From the NCBI GenBank assembly GCA_900552055.1, contig URYI01000037.1, forward strand, positions 1 to 15,454: a DNA stretch of 15,454 nt, read 5' to 3'. This DNA comes from an uncultured Eubacteriales bacterium (GTDB lineage: Bacteria; Bacillota; Clostridia; Christensenellales; QALW01). The notes under the pieces are model-generated. The model did not search any database and was not told the DNA's origin. It worked only from the letters and a program-made list of their open reading frames with translations. Of the stretch, positions 3,977 to 10,467 are shown in pieces; the first letter of the stretch is position 1; each line of letters begins with the position of its first letter. The translations under genes and the position numbers were made by a program.

Positions 3977-4007
3977 AAAAAAGGCCTTTCGCAAGGGACG
4001 AAAGACC
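3977..4007 (-). terminator. Regulated terminator of the pheST T-box leader
   Basis: On the minus strand GGTCTTTCG (4007-3999) pairs with CGAAAGGCC (3991-3983), nine pairs with one G-U, followed by six T (3982-3977). It starts within the end of the T-box core, so antiterminator and terminator are mutually exclusive. Confidence 0.93.
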
Positions 4008-4200
4008 GTGGTACCACCCTAATTTACTCTCAGATAAAGAGCCTTAATTATATAACGGCCTAACGACCGTCCCCGCCTACTGCATTTTTCAGCAGGGCCG
4101 CTCCAAAGTGAACTTCATCCGTCCCCCGCCCAGGCGCTTCCACCAAATACGCCATTCTCTTTAAAGCGAATAAAACAGACTACTTTTCTTTTTCCCAGCG
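3977..4200 (-). promoter_or_regulatory. T-box leader specific for tRNA-Phe
   Basis: The minus strand carries the T-box core AGGGTGGTACCACGG (4020-4006). Its TGGT bulge would pair with an ACCA tRNA end, as expected for tRNA-Phe. A 10-pair Stem I base is formed by CGCTTTAAAG (4168-4159) and CTTTGGAGCG (4108-4099). AGAGAA follows the 5' strand, and GAAGTTCA on the 3' side places TTC (4112-4110) as specifier codon, i.e. phenylalanine. A terminator overlaps the antiterminator. Uncharged tRNA-Phe is predicted to stabilise antitermination and turn on pheST. Confidence 0.95.
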
Positions 4201-4219
4201 TTTATTTTTTATTTTTAAT

Positions 4220-5495: not shown

Positions 5496-8400
5496 TTACT
5501 GTTTAATCCAATCCACAGTATAATAGTTCACGGTTACGGTGATGGGGTATTCATTATAATCAGGCGACATCCAAGGCCATTCTTTAATAGTAACATTTCC
5601 TCTCCAACTTCCTACCATCGCAGTTGCAGCAATACTCTGATTAGATAAATCACAATAAATGTGTGCCTGAATTGTATTAACGCCTGCATCCTCTGAACCA
5701 TATGTATTAAAATCCGTTCCTCCCACAATACAACTGTTTATCAGATACCCTTTTTCCCCCGAATAAGTGAAAGAGACTTTTGGCGATGTATGCCAAGAAC
5801 TGGGATTAGGCAAAGTGGCACTTTTTAGCCCGGAATTATAAAACGCATATTTTTCTATGAGGGTTACATTTTCGGGAATATTAATAAACGATAACGAAGT
5901 GCATCCACTGAATGAATAGCTTCCTATAGTTTTTAGTGAATTTGGAAACACTACTTGTTGTAATGCGGTCAAGTTTTCAAAGCCATTATCTATAATTTCT
6001 GTAACCGCTTTCCCGTTATGTGTATCGGGAATTTCGATTACAGCAACATCTTTAGCTCCTTCTCCGGCCTTAACGCCATATGTACCATCGGACAATTCAA
6101 CATATATCAAAATGTCTTCGCTGCTATCAGCTCCGCTTCCAACGCTTCCCAAATTCTGGTTTGTGCCGTCGGTATAATATACTACCAGTTCACCTGCGTC
6201 GTTAATTTCCATATGGTCAATTCCGCGGCCGGCATCGCCCTTGTCGCCTTTATCCCCCTTTTCGCCCTGCGGGCCTTGTGCGCCTGTCGCGCCGGTTTCA
6301 CCCTGCGGACCCTGCGCGCCCGTTGCGCCTTGCTCGCCCTGCGGGCCCGTTGCGCCGGTATCCCCTTTATCCCCCTTATCCCCCTTGGGACCTTTGACAT
6401 TGCCCAGATTGAATACGGAATTGTCAGTCAGGGTGACGCTCAGTTCGCCTGCGGTGGAAAGGGTCACGGTCTTTATGCCTACTCCGTCCTCGCCGTCAGC
6501 CCCAGACGCGCCGTCAGCGCCGACGACATTGCCGAGATCGGCGGTCTGCCCGTTTGAATAGGTCAGCACCAGATGTCCCGAAGCATTGATTTCTGATTTG
6601 GCAATGCCGATGCCGTCCGCTCCTTTTACATTGCCCAGCTGAAGCAATGTGCCGTTTGTCAATTCTACATTCAGCGCGCCTTGGGCAGTAATGGTGACGT
6701 TGGCAATGCCGACGCCCTGTTCGCCTCTGTCGCCCTTTTCACCTTTGGCCCCATCCTGTCCAACAATGCGGCCAAGGTTGATACTGTCAGAATTGGAAAA
6801 AGTCAAAATCAGTTCGCCGTCATGGTTGATGTCCGCCGCAGAAATACCAATGCCGTCTTGACCCGCTGCACCCGTATCTCCCTTATCACCCTTTTCGCCC
6901 TGGGCCCCATCCTGTCCGTCTTCGCCGACTACTACGCCAAGGTTCTCAGATTCGCCGTTAGAATAGGTAACAATAAGCTCACCGGCCTCATTGATTTCTG
7001 TCTTGGCAACCCCAATGCCGTCTTTGCCGTCTTCGCCCGCCGCGCCGGTATCGCCTTTGTCTCCCTTTTCGCCCTGCGCGCCGTCTTTACCGACTACAAC
7101 GCCAAGATTGGCGGTTTTGCCGTCCGAGTAGGTGATAACCAGCTCACCGGCCTCGTTAATTTCCGTATTGGCAACTCCTATGCCGGCTTCGCCCTGGATA
7201 CCCTGCTCACCCTGCTCGCCTTTGTCGCCCTTTGCCCCGACTACAGCGCCGAGATTAACACTGTCACCGTCCGAATAAGCAATCACCAGTTCTCCGAACT
7301 CGTTGATGGATGCCCCGGAAATACCCACGCCGTCTTCACCGGCAGCGCCTGTTGCTCCCGTATCTCCCTTTTCGCCTTTGATATTGCCCAAATTCAGGGT
7401 AGTGCCGTTTGTCAGGGCAATTTGCAGTTGGTTGTCTTCTGTGATATCAATCGCGCGGATACCGACGCCGTCTTCTCCCTTTTCTCCCTGCTCACCTGTG
7501 GCTCCGGTATCTCCCTTGTCTCCCTTGTCTCCCTTTTCACCCTGTATACCCTGTGCGCCGACCACAACGCCGAGATTTTCCACGCGGTTATCCGAATAGG
7601 TGAGCACCAGTTCGCCTTTTTGGTTAATTTCAGATTTGGTTACGCTGATGCCATCCTTACCCGCCGCGCCGGTGTCCCCCTTGTCACCCTGCGCGCCGGT
7701 TGCACCGGCATCGCCTTTATCGCCCTTGGCCCCAATAACATTTCCAAGATTATCACGCTGGCCGTTGGAATAAGAAAGCACCAGCTCACCAGTGGAGGTG
7801 ATCTCCGCACCGGTCACGCTTATTCCATTTGTACCTGAAGCGCCAGTGTCGCCCTTGTCGCCCTTTTCACCCCGCGCTCCGACAACAACGCCAAGATTGA
7901 CCGCGCTGCCATCAGAGTACGCAAGAATTAGTTCGCCTTTGCCATTAATAGCAGAACTGACAACGCTTATGCCATCCTCCCCCTTCTCTCCTTGAGGCCC
8001 CTGCGCACCTGCTGCCCCTGCGTCGCCTTTATCGCCCTTGGCTCCAATAACATTTCCAAGGTTTGCAGTCTGTCCGTTTGTATAGGTCAATACCAGTTCG
8101 CCTTTGTCGTTTATAACAGAATCCGAAATCCCTACGCCAGCTTCTCCCGTGCTGCCAACAACCTTGTCCAGATTTACGCTGCTGCCATCCGAAAATTCCA
8201 TAATAAGCTGTCCATCGGCATTAATATAAGCCCTGCTTACGCCTACGCCGTCCTTACCTGCTGCACCGGTTGCGCCGGTATCCCCTTTTTCTCCCTGCGC
8301 ACCCGTTGCCCCAGCATCTCCCTTTTCTCCCTTCTCTCCATCCTTGCCGTCAGCGCCAACAGCTTTACCAAGATTAATTACACGTTCATCAGTCAAAGTA

Positions 8401-8771
8401 ATAATCAGCTCACCTTTTTCAGAAAAGGCGGCCGTTTTTATTCCCGCAATATCCTGTTCTGCAGCAGCCTGGAGTGAAGAGGCCCATTCTTGTTCGGTTC
8501 CCGAATATCCGTTTTCCTTTGCAATGTCGTATGCCGATTTGCCTGTAAGAGATTGAAGCCAATCCTGCACTGTTCCTTCGTAGCCGTACTGCACAGCCAA
8601 GTCATATGCTGACAAACCATTTTCCACCTGAGTAATGGCCGGTACGCCCATATCCGTTCTGTGAACTATAATAGCCGATGCCAAAGCAATAGCCATCATA
8701 AGCAAAACAGCCAGAGTTGTCTTAAGAAATTTAACAGCTGTTCTCTTTTTTACATGTACATGCTTTTCCAT
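5496..8771 (-). CDS. Collagen-like repeat surface protein with leucine-rich C-terminus
   Basis: This 1091-residue protein is predicted to be exported or membrane-anchored. A basic start, [10 protein letters not shown], is followed by one hydrophobic segment (about residues 17-36), a signal peptide or signal anchor. Residues 53-105 hold two copies of a short SAYDxA..GY.GT..(D/E)W motif. Residues 108-878 alternate fifteen ~30-residue modules (pattern: inx.[10 protein letters not shown]...NLGnVvG) with collagen-like G-X-Y tracts rich in [13 protein letters not shown]. Proline is scarce, so stability probably comes from K/D/E pairs. Residues 909-985 look like BspA-type leucine-rich repeats ([20 protein letters not shown], then [16 protein letters not shown]). 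The last ~100 residues are unrecognised. I see no LPxTG motif or C-terminal membrane anchor. A TAGG/AAGG-like site lies about 9 bases before the ATG. Expression is probably set by the invertible segment upstream. The role is likely an adhesin or fibrous surface structure; this is inference. Confidence 0.9.
6138..8450 (-). repeat. Fifteen alternating beta-module / collagen-tract repeats
   Basis: Within the collagen-like gene, fifteen modules of about 30 residues alternate with fourteen G-X-Y tracts. The tracts range from very short (after modules 2 and 12) to about 18 triplets (between modules 14 and 15). Modules 9 and 10 share [13 protein letters not shown] and differ little, and the tracts after modules 3 and 5 share [13 protein letters not shown], which suggests recent internal duplication. 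At DNA level this makes a GC-rich, repetitive block prone to slippage or recombination that changes length. Confidence 0.9.
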
Positions 8772-8810: not shown

Positions 8811-8828
8811 ACATAAGAAGCATTATGT
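8811..8828 (+). repeat. Inverted repeat, gene-proximal recombination site
   Basis: ACATAAGAAGCATTATGT. The arms ACATAA and TTATGT are palindromic and surround a 6-base centre GAAGCA. The site ends 40 bases before the collagen-like start codon. Its exact reverse complement lies at 9084-9101. Confidence 0.88.
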
Positions 8829-8915
8829 AATAAACGCGGACGGAAAAGAGAACGGGCGCAGATGCGGGAAAAGGACGATATGTAAATTAACTGAAAAATA
8901 AACGTGTTAAAACAG

Positions 8916-8943
8916 GCCTTTTAAAAATTCTTTGTTAAAAGGC
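8916..8943. terminator. Hairpin inside the invertible segment, possible terminator
   Basis: GCCTTTTAA (8916-8924) pairs perfectly with TTAAAAGGC (8935-8943) around a 10-base loop. Neither side has a long T run immediately after the stem. On the minus strand it would lie between the weaker promoter and the collagen-like gene, so it could reinforce the OFF state. Confidence 0.45.
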
Positions 8944-8989
8944 TTATTTGTGCTGCGTAAAAAGCCGAATTTTTCTGAAAAATCAGTTT

Positions 8990-9019
8990 TTTATACCCAA
9001 AATATCTTGCATGCCTCAA
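8990..9019 (-). promoter_or_regulatory. Weak promoter candidate facing the collagen-like gene
   Basis: On the minus strand TTGAGG (9019-9014), 18 bases, then TATAAA (8995-8990). It overlaps the stronger plus-strand promoter back to back, and its transcript would meet the hairpin at 8916-8943 before the gene. Confidence 0.4.
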
Positions 9020-9035
9020 GAAAGCATGATATAAT
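9007..9035 (+). promoter_or_regulatory. Main promoter of the invertible segment, pointing away from the gene
   Basis: TTGCAT (9007-9012), exactly 17 bases, then a consensus TATAAT (9030-9035). As drawn it fires into the repeat at 9084-9101 and the terminator at 9106-9131. After inversion it would face the collagen-like gene with a leader of roughly 100 bases. Confidence 0.72.
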
Positions 9036-9083
9036 TACATGAAAATATAAGGGTTGCCGCACTAGATATTACCCTGGAATACA

Positions 9084-9101
9084 ACATAATGCTTCTTATG
9101 T
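9084..9101 (-). repeat. Inverted repeat, recombinase-proximal recombination site
   Basis: On the minus strand this is ACATAAGAAGCATTATGT, identical to 8811-8828 on the plus strand. Read on the minus strand, both sites have the form ACATAA-N6-TTATGTTGTA, differing only in the inverted 6-base centre (GAAGCA versus TGCTTC). The centre thus sets site polarity and predicts inversion rather than excision. Confidence 0.88.
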
Positions 9102-9105
9102 ACTC

Positions 9106-9131
9106 ATCCGCTGCTCGGCAGCGGATTTTTT
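9106..9131 (+). terminator. Intrinsic terminator outside the invertible segment
   Basis: ATCCGCTGC (9106-9114), loop TCG, GCAGCGGAT (9118-9126), then a T run to 9131. Its direction is plus, so it would stop transcripts leaving the OFF-oriented promoter before they become antisense to the recombinase gene. Confidence 0.9.
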
Positions 9132-9150: not shown

Positions 9151-9996
9151 CTATATTATCAGACGCATGTTTTCCATTTGCCTGCGGTGCTCCGCACCGG
9201 TAGAGATAATATAAATACGAGTGGTATTGATGCTGGAATGTCCCAATATATCGGCAAGTTTGGCTATATCCTTTTCCAGGCTGTAAAATACGCGGGCAAA
9301 AAGGCGGCGCAGATTATGCGGGAAGACCTTTGCCGGATTTACGTTGGATTGAGCGCAAATGCCTTTCATCTCCCTCCAGATATTGGTGCGGCTTACAGGT
9401 CTGCCGGTGCGGGTAATAAATATCGCTCCCGATTTAATGCCCTGTTCCGCGGCATAGCTCAGCAGTTTTTTCCGCAATGCGCGTACAATGAAAACCGTCC
9501 TGGTTTTTCCTTTAAGAGAAACTGATACTTCGCCTCGCCTAACCGCCTCAACAGTTATAAATTGCAGCTCGCTTACGCGTATACCCGTACCACAGATGGT
9601 TTGCAATAAAAGATTAAGCCGCGTATTGCCTTTTTTTCGGGCCGTATCCGCAAGCCGCATATATTCCTCCCTTGTCAGTTCCTTTTCTCTAGGATAATAA
9701 ACCGTTCTCTGTACCTTAACACTCTTAACCCTGAATTCCGTCCAGTTCAGAAAGGAAAACAGGCTGTTAAGGCTCGCCAGCATGGAATTGACGCTGCGGA
9801 CAGAATAACCGCCGTTAATCAAATGCTCTTTATAAGCAACTACCGCTTCCTTTGTAACGATTATGTCCGCACAGAAAAGGGCAAAGCTGCGTGCATCCCG
9901 CAGATACTTCCCGATAGTATTCGCACTTTTTTCTTCTCTTTGGAGATATGCTTCAAATGCGCATATTATTTTTTTAGTTAAAATACACTCTCCTAT
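9151..9996 (-). CDS. Tyrosine recombinase (Xer/phage-integrase family), non-standard start
   Basis: This is a site-specific DNA recombinase with a full catalytic set: Arg140 (GTGIRVSEL), Lys164 (KGKTRT), His227 and Arg230 (PHNLRR), His253 (LGHSSINTT) and nucleophile Tyr262 (TRIY). Numbering assumes 281 residues from an ATA at 9996. The N-terminal core-binding domain is clear (FEAYLQREEKSANTIGKYLR, then NSMLASLNSLFSFL) and lies mostly upstream of the first usual start codon, a TTG at 9822. That TTG would leave 223 residues and remove most of the domain. No ATG, GTG or TTG occurs upstream in the open frame. A perfect GGAGGTGA (10010-10003) lies 6 bases before ATA 9996; an ATT at 9984 follows AGGAG. 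The in-frame ATG at 10014 is cut by TGA at codon 4. The start is therefore uncertain, or the gene is impaired. Likely job: inverting 8811-9101. Confidence 0.83.
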   Translation of the reverse strand: MGECILTKKIICAFEAYLQREEKSANTIGKYLRDARSFALFCADIIVTKEAVVAYKEHLINGGYSVRSVNSMLASLNSLFSFLNWTEFRVKSVKVQRTVYYPREKELTREEYMRLADTARKKGNTRLNLLLQTICGTGIRVSELQFITVEAVRRGEVSVSLKGKTRTVFIVRALRKKLLSYAAEQGIKSGAIFITRTGRPVSRTNIWREMKGICAQSNVNPAKVFPHNLRRLFARVFYSLEKDIAKLADILGHSSINTTRIYIISTGAEHRRQMENMRLII

Positions 9997-10117
9997 TTTT
10001 ATTCACCTCCCCATTAACCTTTTTCATTCTATCTGAAAATCAGGCTTAAGTATCAGCATTCTGCAAAATACCGATATAATAAAGGCATAATACAGAAGGA
10101 AATTGTACATCCTTGCG

Positions 10118-10258: not shown

Positions 10259-10271
10259 ATATTAACTAAAT

Positions 10272-10431
10272 GTTAGAGGTGCGTATTTAATTAGTAGCCT
10301 GTCCCAGGGCGCACGGCCCGATGAAGCCAGGCAAAAGGTAACTACGCCGAAAGAACCGTGTTGTGCGGCGCGGCTCTTGGTTGTGCAGCAAACAGCTGCC
10401 CGACTGTCATCCTTGCCGATGGAGTGCTAAC
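10272..10431 (+). promoter_or_regulatory. Lysine riboswitch (L box)
   Basis: The conserved GTTAGAGGTGCG start and the GTCATCCTTGCCGATGGAG...CTAAC end match the lysine riboswitch. P1 is closed by GTTAG (10272-10276) and CTAAC (10427-10431). Between them are AGTAGCCTG...CAGGCAAAAGG, ACGCCGAAAG and further helices, including GCAGC/GCTGC. It precedes asd-dapA-dapB, whose pathway leads to lysine. Lysine binding is predicted to favour the terminator at 10468-10505. Confidence 0.9.
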
Positions 10432-10467
10432 TGCCATAGAGAGCATTTTTGCAGCTAAGGTATTATT

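What the first reader, a model, noticed from the sequence alone, without database searches (positions are those of the whole stretch)
8811..9101. Invertible promoter switch for a collagen-like surface protein, apparently caught OFF
Seen directly: perfect 18-base inverted repeats bound 255 bases lying between a large surface-type repeat protein and a complete tyrosine recombinase gene. Each repeat is ACATAA-N6-TTATGT, and the N6 centres are reverse complements while the flanking TTATGTTGTA arm is the same on the minus strand at both sites. That is arm-spacer-arm geometry with polarity set by the spacer, as known for Xer-like crossover sites. Inside is TTGCAT-N17-TATAAT, pointing away from the gene and into a strong terminator at 9106-9131. 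Inversion would give the gene a promoter with a leader of about 100 bases. Inferred: ON/OFF phase variation of the collagen-like protein.
Basis: partly seen in the sequence, partly recalled or inferred. Interest (0 to 1): 0.88.

Follow-up and report, generated by a model that had tools for sequence, protein, structure and literature searches.

The report
Flip-flop promoter cassette, currently OFF
A bacterium, probably one of the gut Clostridia, carries a 1.2-kb on/off switch (a recombinase gene next to a flippable promoter) in front of a collagen-like surface protein; related bacteria carry the same cassette, in both positions, in front of many different genes.

Summary
Observation confirmed: two exact 18-nt inverted copies of ACATAA-N6-TTATGT (8811-8828, 9084-9101) bound 255 nt holding a promoter-like sequence (9007-9035) that points away from the collagen-like gene, into a terminator (9106-9131). 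Of 80 related genome loci, 66 carry both sites in this layout. The homologous segment reads OFF in 55 and ON in 11 of 67 loci, window included, 1 undecided. In two species of one genus the DNA is collinear up to both sites while the segment between is inverted. ON states are scattered over the recombinase tree. The unit looks portable: genes behind it differ, homology between cassettes often stops at the distal site, and in L007 and L023 it lies among mobile-element genes. Caveat: the window's recombinase has ATA where 78 of 81 relatives have ATG, so this copy may flip rarely or be locked OFF. No reads or second genome of this species were available. The kind is known; a published Clostridia inverton group (139, PMC11892184) is probably this family, unproven.

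The parts
9151..9996 (-). tyrosine recombinase gene (Xer-like, about 281 codons) with ATA at the position where most relatives have ATG
   Evidence: PF00589 E 1.1e-23 and PF02899 E 2.5e-8 (given 9154-9984); XerA/XerD/XerC models match below their cut-offs; start position
10006..10010 (-). GGAGG, likely ribosome-binding site, 9 nt before the ATA
   Evidence: read; aligned with relatives
9106..9131 (+). catcher terminator: would stop transcripts leaving the switch towards the recombinase in the OFF state
   Evidence: same element in 51 of 68 cassettes, other strand 1 of 68
9084..9101 (.). recombinase-proximal crossover site ACATAA-TGCTTC-TTATGT
8829..9083 (.). invertible segment (255 nt), OFF orientation
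9007..9035 (+). promoter-like TTGCAT-N17-TATAAT, pointing away from the collagen-like gene
   Evidence: not listed by the scan
8910..8949 (.). hairpin upstream of the promoter, conserved in the family consensus; likely terminator that insulates the promoter
   Evidence: (I3), consensus, -12.9 and -10.5 kcal/mol on the two strands
8811..8828 (.). target-proximal (distal) crossover site ACATAA-GAAGCA-TTATGT
5496..8771 (-). target: 1091-aa collagen-like protein with an apparent N-terminal hydrophobic anchor (by eye) and a BspA-type LRR region
   Evidence: PF01391 E 3.3e-36 and PF13306 E 6.2e-17

Best explanation
A self-contained phase-variation cassette. An Xer-like tyrosine recombinase acts on two dif-like sites (ACATAA-N6-TTATGT, spacers oppositely oriented) just downstream of its own gene and flips the 255-nt segment between them. 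One way round, the promoter in the segment drives the collagen-like surface protein (ON); the other way, as in this window, it fires back towards the recombinase and is stopped by the catcher terminator (OFF). Shown by comparison: the layout, the paired spacers, both orientations in relatives, and inversion between the sites in two species of one genus. Inferred: that this recombinase does it, that the promoter works, and that the collagen-like protein is thereby turned on and off. For this copy the switching rate may be low, because the recombinase gene begins with ATA.
For: Exact inverted sites (0 of 200 shuffles). Of 80 genome loci (61-74% protein identity; best 80 of 120 found), 66 have both sites with up to 2 mismatches each, 13 one site, 1 none; 10 of the 13 reach a contig end within 325 nt of the recombinase stop. 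Spacers: 34 different N6 in 68 modules, yet 54 of 68 site pairs are exact reverse complements over 18 nt, 10 differ at one position, 3 at two, 1 at five. Orientation by leave-one-out profile: 55 OFF, 11 ON, 1 undecided of 67. L031/L036: recombinases 97% identical; collinear matches (95.5% and 84%) stop at the proximal and start at the distal site, and the segment matches on the opposite strand at 89.4%. Orientation does not cluster on the tree: 12 changes for 12 ON rows, shuffled mean 11.3. Catcher terminator in 51 of 68, other strand 1 of 68. Site pairs of the same core lie beside related recombinases (47-49% identity) in records named Subdoligranulum variabile (L133, L135) and Monoglobus pectinilyticus (L134).
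Against: No reads and no genome of the window's own species, so both orientations are not shown here. ATA at the recombinase start against ATG in 78 of 81 relatives. The window has the longest end branch, 0.46, of the 22 rows in its smallest supported group (others 0.015-0.35); four rows elsewhere are as long (0.46-0.68). The window's spacer GAAGCA departs from the usual first two positions (67 of 68 have T or A first, 58 of 68 C second). The generic scan missed the promoter. Orientation calls start from a promoter scan, so the profile is not independent of it; L063 changed its call, L066 stayed undecided and L061 (930 nt) was left out. The tree is a quick one with 32 of 64 inner branches weak.
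Confidence: 0.9

Rival explanations
1. Locked or decaying switch: the cassette was a working phase switch, but in this lineage the recombinase is made poorly or not at all (ATA start), so the collagen-like gene is stably OFF unless another recombinase of the cell acts on the sites.
For: ATA at the start position against ATG in 78 of 81 relatives; no ATG, GTG or TTG in frame before TTG at 9822; long end branch; unusual spacer.
Against: The frame is uninterrupted and the R, K, HxxR, H and Y of tyrosine recombinases (motif recalled) can be read in it; the two sites still match exactly, which decay would not keep for long; ATA and ATT are rare but usable starts (recalled). L017 and L061 have ACG there, and L017 reads ON.
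Confidence: 0.35
2. The sites serve gene capture as well as inversion: the distal dif-like site is a point at which new target genes are exchanged, as in pdif modules or integrons, so the cassette gathers phase-variable cargo.
For: Of 197 pairwise DNA matches that run from the recombinase into the segment, 48 end between -1 and +21 nt of the last base of the distal site and 42 run on into a shared target. L055 shares 3.6 kb (94%) with L007 and 2.2 kb (90%) with L023 upstream; both matches resume and end at the distal site (+1 and +4), and the genes beyond differ: PD-(D/E)XK nuclease in L055, collagen-like in L007 and SPFH-like in L023 (by cluster). Flanking genes of L007 and L023 are mobile-element families.
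Against: Moving a whole cassette, or ordinary recombination inside a mobile element, would also put the end of homology at the last conserved element. 106 of the 197 matches end 55-112 nt before the site's end, and the L007/L023 match ends 56 nt before the site begins. No second boundary site with up to 2 mismatches was seen beyond L007's or L023's target; L055 has one poor 2-mismatch hit 3.7 kb on.
Confidence: 0.12
3. No inversion: the repeats are binding sites or bidirectional terminators, and the likeness to a switch is chance.
For: The core alone occurs by chance now and then (0-2 hits per genome of the reversed control pattern).
Against: Homologous segments in opposite orientations and the L031/L036 inversion; matched variable spacers.
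Confidence: 0.02

Closest known systems
hCom2 inverton group 139 with invertase group 35 (PMC11892184; section 8 and passages read)
   Same: 33 invertons, 32 from Clostridia; [quoted passage not shown] flipping followed by reads. Printed example in Clostridium sp. D5: 26-bp repeats 205 nt apart; 26 equals the 10+6+10 of the longest sites here.
   Different: Its repeat motif is in a supplement that I could not open, so identity with this family is probable, not shown. Another printed member (Intestinimonas butyriciproducens) has 14-bp repeats 227 nt apart, shorter than the 18-nt core here, which speaks against or shows looser repeats.
C. difficile RecV switches such as cwpV (PMC2784873, PMC5386303: listing and start of abstract only; PMC5903667: passages)
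   Same: Tyrosine recombinase that flips short segments upstream of surface or regulatory genes in a Clostridia host.
   Different: RecV serves at least the cwpV and flagellar switches (PMC5903667 passage); here the switches mostly have their own adjacent recombinase. Site sequences were not compared.
Xer/dif chromosome dimer resolution
   Same: Recombinase sequence (PDB 4a8e, 'probable tyrosine recombinase XerC-like', E 1.9e-18; XerD 1a0p E 2e-13); core CATAA-N6-TTATG as in E. coli dif (dif sequence recalled).
   Different: Sites come as inverted pairs with like arms; XerC/XerD model cut-offs are not reached (105 against 335 and 330 bits).
E. coli fim switch (recalled)
   Same: Invertible promoter beside tyrosine recombinase genes, surface structure as target.
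   Different: The two 'tyrosine-type DNA invertase' models (which I recall as fim-type) match at 22 bits against cut-offs of 221-222.

Membership tests
Tyrosine-recombinase invertible promoter (inverton) | Inverted repeats bounding a short segment | tested here: met
Tyrosine-recombinase invertible promoter (inverton) | Promoter inside the segment that can face the target gene | tested here: met
   by consensus and position only; missed by the scan; 105 nt from -10 to ATG after inversion in silico
Tyrosine-recombinase invertible promoter (inverton) | Both orientations occur in the family | tested here: met
   11 ON, 55 OFF, 1 undecided of 67; L031/L036
Tyrosine-recombinase invertible promoter (inverton) | Both orientations occur in the window's own species | not testable with these tools
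   no genome of it held, no reads
Tyrosine-recombinase invertible promoter (inverton) | A functional recombinase acts on the sites | tested here: inconclusive
   gene adjacent and of full length but ATA start
Tyrosine-recombinase invertible promoter (inverton) | Target expression follows orientation | not testable with these tools
   needs RNA data or a reporter
XerC/XerD housekeeping recombinase | Reaches curated XerC/XerD model cut-offs | tested here: not met
   104.7 and 104.8 bits against 335.15 and 329.6
hCom2 inverton group 139 / invertase group 35 | Same inverted-repeat motif | not testable with these tools
   motif only in a supplement; class fits, one printed repeat length fits and one does not
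Fim-type DNA invertase | Reaches the DNA invertase model cut-offs | tested here: not met
   22.4 and 22.5 bits against 222 and 221

The most novel reading that the evidence does not exclude
A widespread, portable phase-variation cassette of gut Clostridia (own promoter, Xer-like recombinase, catcher terminator, two dif-like sites with a locus-specific 6-nt spacer, insulated promoter) that plugs onto unrelated genes and rides on mobile elements, so that cargo put behind the distal site becomes phase-variable at once; target exchange may itself use the distal dif-like site. In the window a copy between pheST and asd-dapAB is being frozen OFF by loss of the recombinase's start codon.
Probability: 0.3. 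Interest if true: 0.75.

Novelty: new member of a known kind. Interest (0 to 1): 0.5.

Why it matters
It suggests how mostly uncultured gut Clostridia could toggle surface proteins, nucleases, helicases, SPFH-like membrane proteins and a peptide synthetase with one standard part. The site motif, the paired spacers and the layout make such switches findable by a simple pattern search, and recombinase plus sites could be tested as a compact toggle in laboratory strains. The change of targets behind the distal site on mobile elements would be a direct route by which cargo becomes phase-variable.

Tried and rejected
Spacer as an address that keeps the switches of one cell apart: no support. In 20 genomes with at least two modules, 2 of 51 same-genome pairs share the N6 (in G043 and G048), against 0.98 expected by shuffling; with a possible extra copy in G055, 3 of 54 against 1.02. 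The module list was typed by hand and leaves out lone sites without a recombinase and likely split loci.

Contig ends as a sign of mixed orientations: 10 of 37 visible downstream contig ends fall within 325 nt of the recombinase stop; 3 of 42 upstream ends do so on their side (Fisher p 0.03; against a uniform expectation 2e-7). Suggestive only. In the one split locus that I compared (L076/L097) the halves did not show opposite orientations.

ON loci lack the catcher terminator more often (7 of 12 against 10 of 55, Fisher p 0.008), but tree-independent pairs do not support it (6 pairs, median p 0.625). Outer-arm bias between ON and OFF loci: no clear difference.

Named phage and plasmid homes: no match of 60% identity or more (44 phage and 242 plasmid records, all below); the nearest phage record, L136, showed no site pair. 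L132 (Pusillibacter faecalis) has an exact inverted repeat but not this core.

Paper searches: motif searches listed 5 and 5 papers, none of which by title is about a Clostridia switch of this kind; topic searches held 0, 77 (30 listed), 67 (25 listed), 3, 0 and 5 papers.

Full report
What is there. The two repeats are exact reverse complements of 18 nt, 8811-8828 and 9084-9101, 255 nt apart. None of 200 dinucleotide shuffles of the window gives an exact 18-nt inverted repeat at 30-600 nt spacing. Each is ACATAA-N6-TTATGT; the N6 is GAAGCA at one and TGCTTC at the other, so the spacers face opposite ways, the arrangement that gives inversion. Inside lies TTGCAT-N17-TATAAT (9007-9035, + strand) with a TG before the -10. 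It points away from the collagen-like gene (5496-8771, minus strand) and into a hairpin with T-run at 9106-9131 (-14.9 kcal/mol). The generic promoter scan did not list this promoter. A second hairpin, 8910-8949, lies upstream of the promoter.

The neighbours. The gene at 9151-9996 (minus) encodes a tyrosine recombinase with SAM-like and catalytic domains. Its best matches among solved structures are a XerC-like recombinase and XerD, but it is far below the cut-offs of the XerC and XerD models. The target has collagen repeats and a BspA-type LRR region. The cassette sits between genes that I recognise as pheS-pheT, behind a T-box, and asd-dapA-dapB, behind a lysine riboswitch (RNA elements; frames; gene names recalled, not searched).

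Relatives. A scan of one genome per species found 120 relatives; the best 80 loci were kept (61-74% identity; titles mostly of Clostridia MAGs). Both sites, with up to 2 mismatches each, are present in 66 of the 80, one site in 13 and none in 1. With the window and one viral-contig locus (L001) this gives 68 modules. The first site lies a median of 30 nt after the recombinase stop; the segment has a median of 243.5 nt, and 64 of 68 are 215-280 nt. There are 34 different proximal spacers in 68 modules; 54 of 68 site pairs are exact reverse complements, 10 differ at one of 18 positions, 3 at two and 1 at five. Variable between loci yet matched within a locus is what recombination between two sites maintains.

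More of them in the same genomes. The pattern was found in 5 of 5, 47 of 50 and 24 of 25 genomes that hold these loci (two genomes counted twice); the reversed control pattern gives 0-2 per genome. Of 40 further stretches fetched because they hold the pattern, 27 have a recombinase match and a site pair, 3 a recombinase and one site, 3 a pair without a recombinase match in the stretch, and 7 a lone site. Many of these recombinases are only 45-60% identical to the window's and their sites have other outer arms, such as GACC, GACG and CACC.

Both orientations. The segment is homologous across loci. With an alignment oriented first by promoter scan and a profile built without the locus being judged, 55 segments read OFF (promoter towards the recombinase), 11 ON and 1 (L066) undecided of 67; L061, with 930 nt, was left out and L063 changed from ON by scan to OFF by profile. 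The window reads OFF (49.4 against 9.2 bits). The cleanest case is L031 and L036, from one genus, with recombinases 97% identical. One collinear match (95.5%) runs through the recombinase and stops at the proximal site; another (84%) starts at the distal site and runs into the target; between them 188 nt match on the opposite strand (89.4%), from the site inwards, fading out inside the segment. L036's distal spacer no longer matches its proximal one, so that copy may be stuck. On the recombinase tree the 12 ON rows (the 11 plus L066, ON by promoter scan) need 12 changes; shuffled labels need 11.3 on average. The tree is a quick one, 32 of 64 inner branches weak. Orientation is thus not inherited for long.

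Parts that make it a cassette. In 51 of 68 modules a terminator faces the switch just before the recombinase's end; the same scan on the other strand finds 1 of 68. It would stop OFF-state transcripts before they run antisense through the recombinase. The hairpin upstream of the promoter is conserved in the segment consensus. In 5 of 8 pairs inspected the DNA match begins 62-278 nt before the recombinase; in the other 3 it runs 1.4 kb or more upstream. Of 197 matches that run from the recombinase into the segment, 48 end between -1 and +21 nt of the end of the distal site, 106 end 55-112 nt before it, 1 ends at +42, and 42 run on by more than 100 nt, into a shared target.

Targets. For 67 of 68 modules a downstream frame was called, by length within 600 nt, which is a guess for some loci (49 of 67 start within 100 nt of the site). 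Sequence clusters are SPFH-like (16 rows; Pfam run on one of them, L002), a protein with no Pfam match where tested (7 rows; L041 tested), collagen-like (4, window included), five pairs and 30 singletons. Pfam on 20 targets, 10 in each, names SPFH/Band 7, helicases with restriction-type domains, an HNH and a PD-(D/E)XK nuclease, an NRPS module, a histidine kinase, a STAS/APH protein, a protein kinase, collagen and other repeat proteins; 6 of the 20 had no family. The 4 collagen-like rows need 4 changes on the tree; SPFH needs 12 changes for 15 rows (L025 was not labelled), shuffled mean 13.8, 41 of 300 shuffles as low. Target and recombinase are only loosely tied.

Mobility. L055 shares 3.6 kb (94%) with L007 and 2.2 kb (90%) with L023 up to and into the recombinase; after a gap of about 60 nt inside the gene both matches go on to the distal site and end there (+1 and +4 nt). 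The L007/L023 match (2.5 kb, 87%) ends 56 nt before the distal site. The genes beyond are a PD-(D/E)XK nuclease (L055), a collagen-like (L007) and an SPFH-like gene (L023; both by cluster). Flanking genes match NikA-like and TnpV (L007), ParB, actin-like, large serine recombinase and TnpV (L023) families, so there the cassette rides on mobile-element DNA; L055 shares L007's upstream DNA. Occurrence is patchy: matches of at least 48% identity are found in 3 of 60 genomes of one genus (one of them cut short) and in 11 of 39 of another, both genera chosen because they hold the cassette. In a family sample, pairs of sites were seen in few of 150 genomes (30 had the pattern at all).

The window's copy. 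At the start of the recombinase 78 of 81 relatives have an in-frame ATG; the window has ATA at 9996-9994, L017 and L061 have ACG and L079 TTG. The next ordinary start in frame is TTG at 9822. The window also has the longest end branch of the 22 rows of its smallest supported group, 0.46 against 0.015-0.35, and an unusual spacer. Either the rare start is used at low level or the switch is being lost. Both sites are still exact, so any loss is recent or another recombinase keeps them.

Literature. PMC11892184 (section 8 and passages read) reports inverton group 139: 33 invertons, 32 from Clostridia, linked to one tyrosine-type recombinase group, with flipping followed by reads. One printed example has 26-bp repeats 205 nt apart, the length of two 10-nt arms and a 6-nt spacer; another has 14-bp repeats 227 nt apart, which fits less well. 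The motif is in a supplement that I could not open, so I call the link probable. PMC5903667 (passages) reports that 14 of 15 inversion-positive Firmicutes species were Clostridia. The passages that I saw of PMC8138268 do not describe such a group. Two motif searches and six topic searches listed no paper that by title or abstract start describes this site; that covers only the open-licence library and, for two searches, only the listed part.

Verdict.

Noticed in passing
window 9994-9996 (minus): The recombinase has ATA at the start position held by ATG in 78 of 81 relatives; L017 and L061 have ACG there.
   Followed up: yes
L007, L055, L023 beyond the distal site: Shared upstream DNA, different gene past the distal site, mobile-element genes nearby.
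   Followed up: partly
L057 2751/3046/3101, L099 2964/3216/3261/3306, L105 2947/3029/3322, L133 4874/5103/5158: Some switches carry a third (or fourth) site 45-82 nt from another, in the same orientation as that neighbour; it could give alternative inversions or deletions.
   Followed up: no
L036 distal site: The distal site no longer matches the proximal one (5 differences of 18), in an ON copy: possibly frozen ON.
   Followed up: no
12 ON loci: 7 of 12 ON loci lack the catcher terminator against 10 of 55 OFF loci (Fisher p 0.008), not supported by independent pairs.
   Followed up: partly
window 3991-4205 (-) and 10266-10437 (+): T-box leader upstream of the pheS-like gene and lysine riboswitch upstream of the asd-like gene.
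   Followed up: no
L132 4833-4852 and 5121-5140: Pusillibacter faecalis: related recombinase (48%) next to an exact 20-nt inverted repeat with another core, upstream of an S-layer-homology protein.
   Followed up: no
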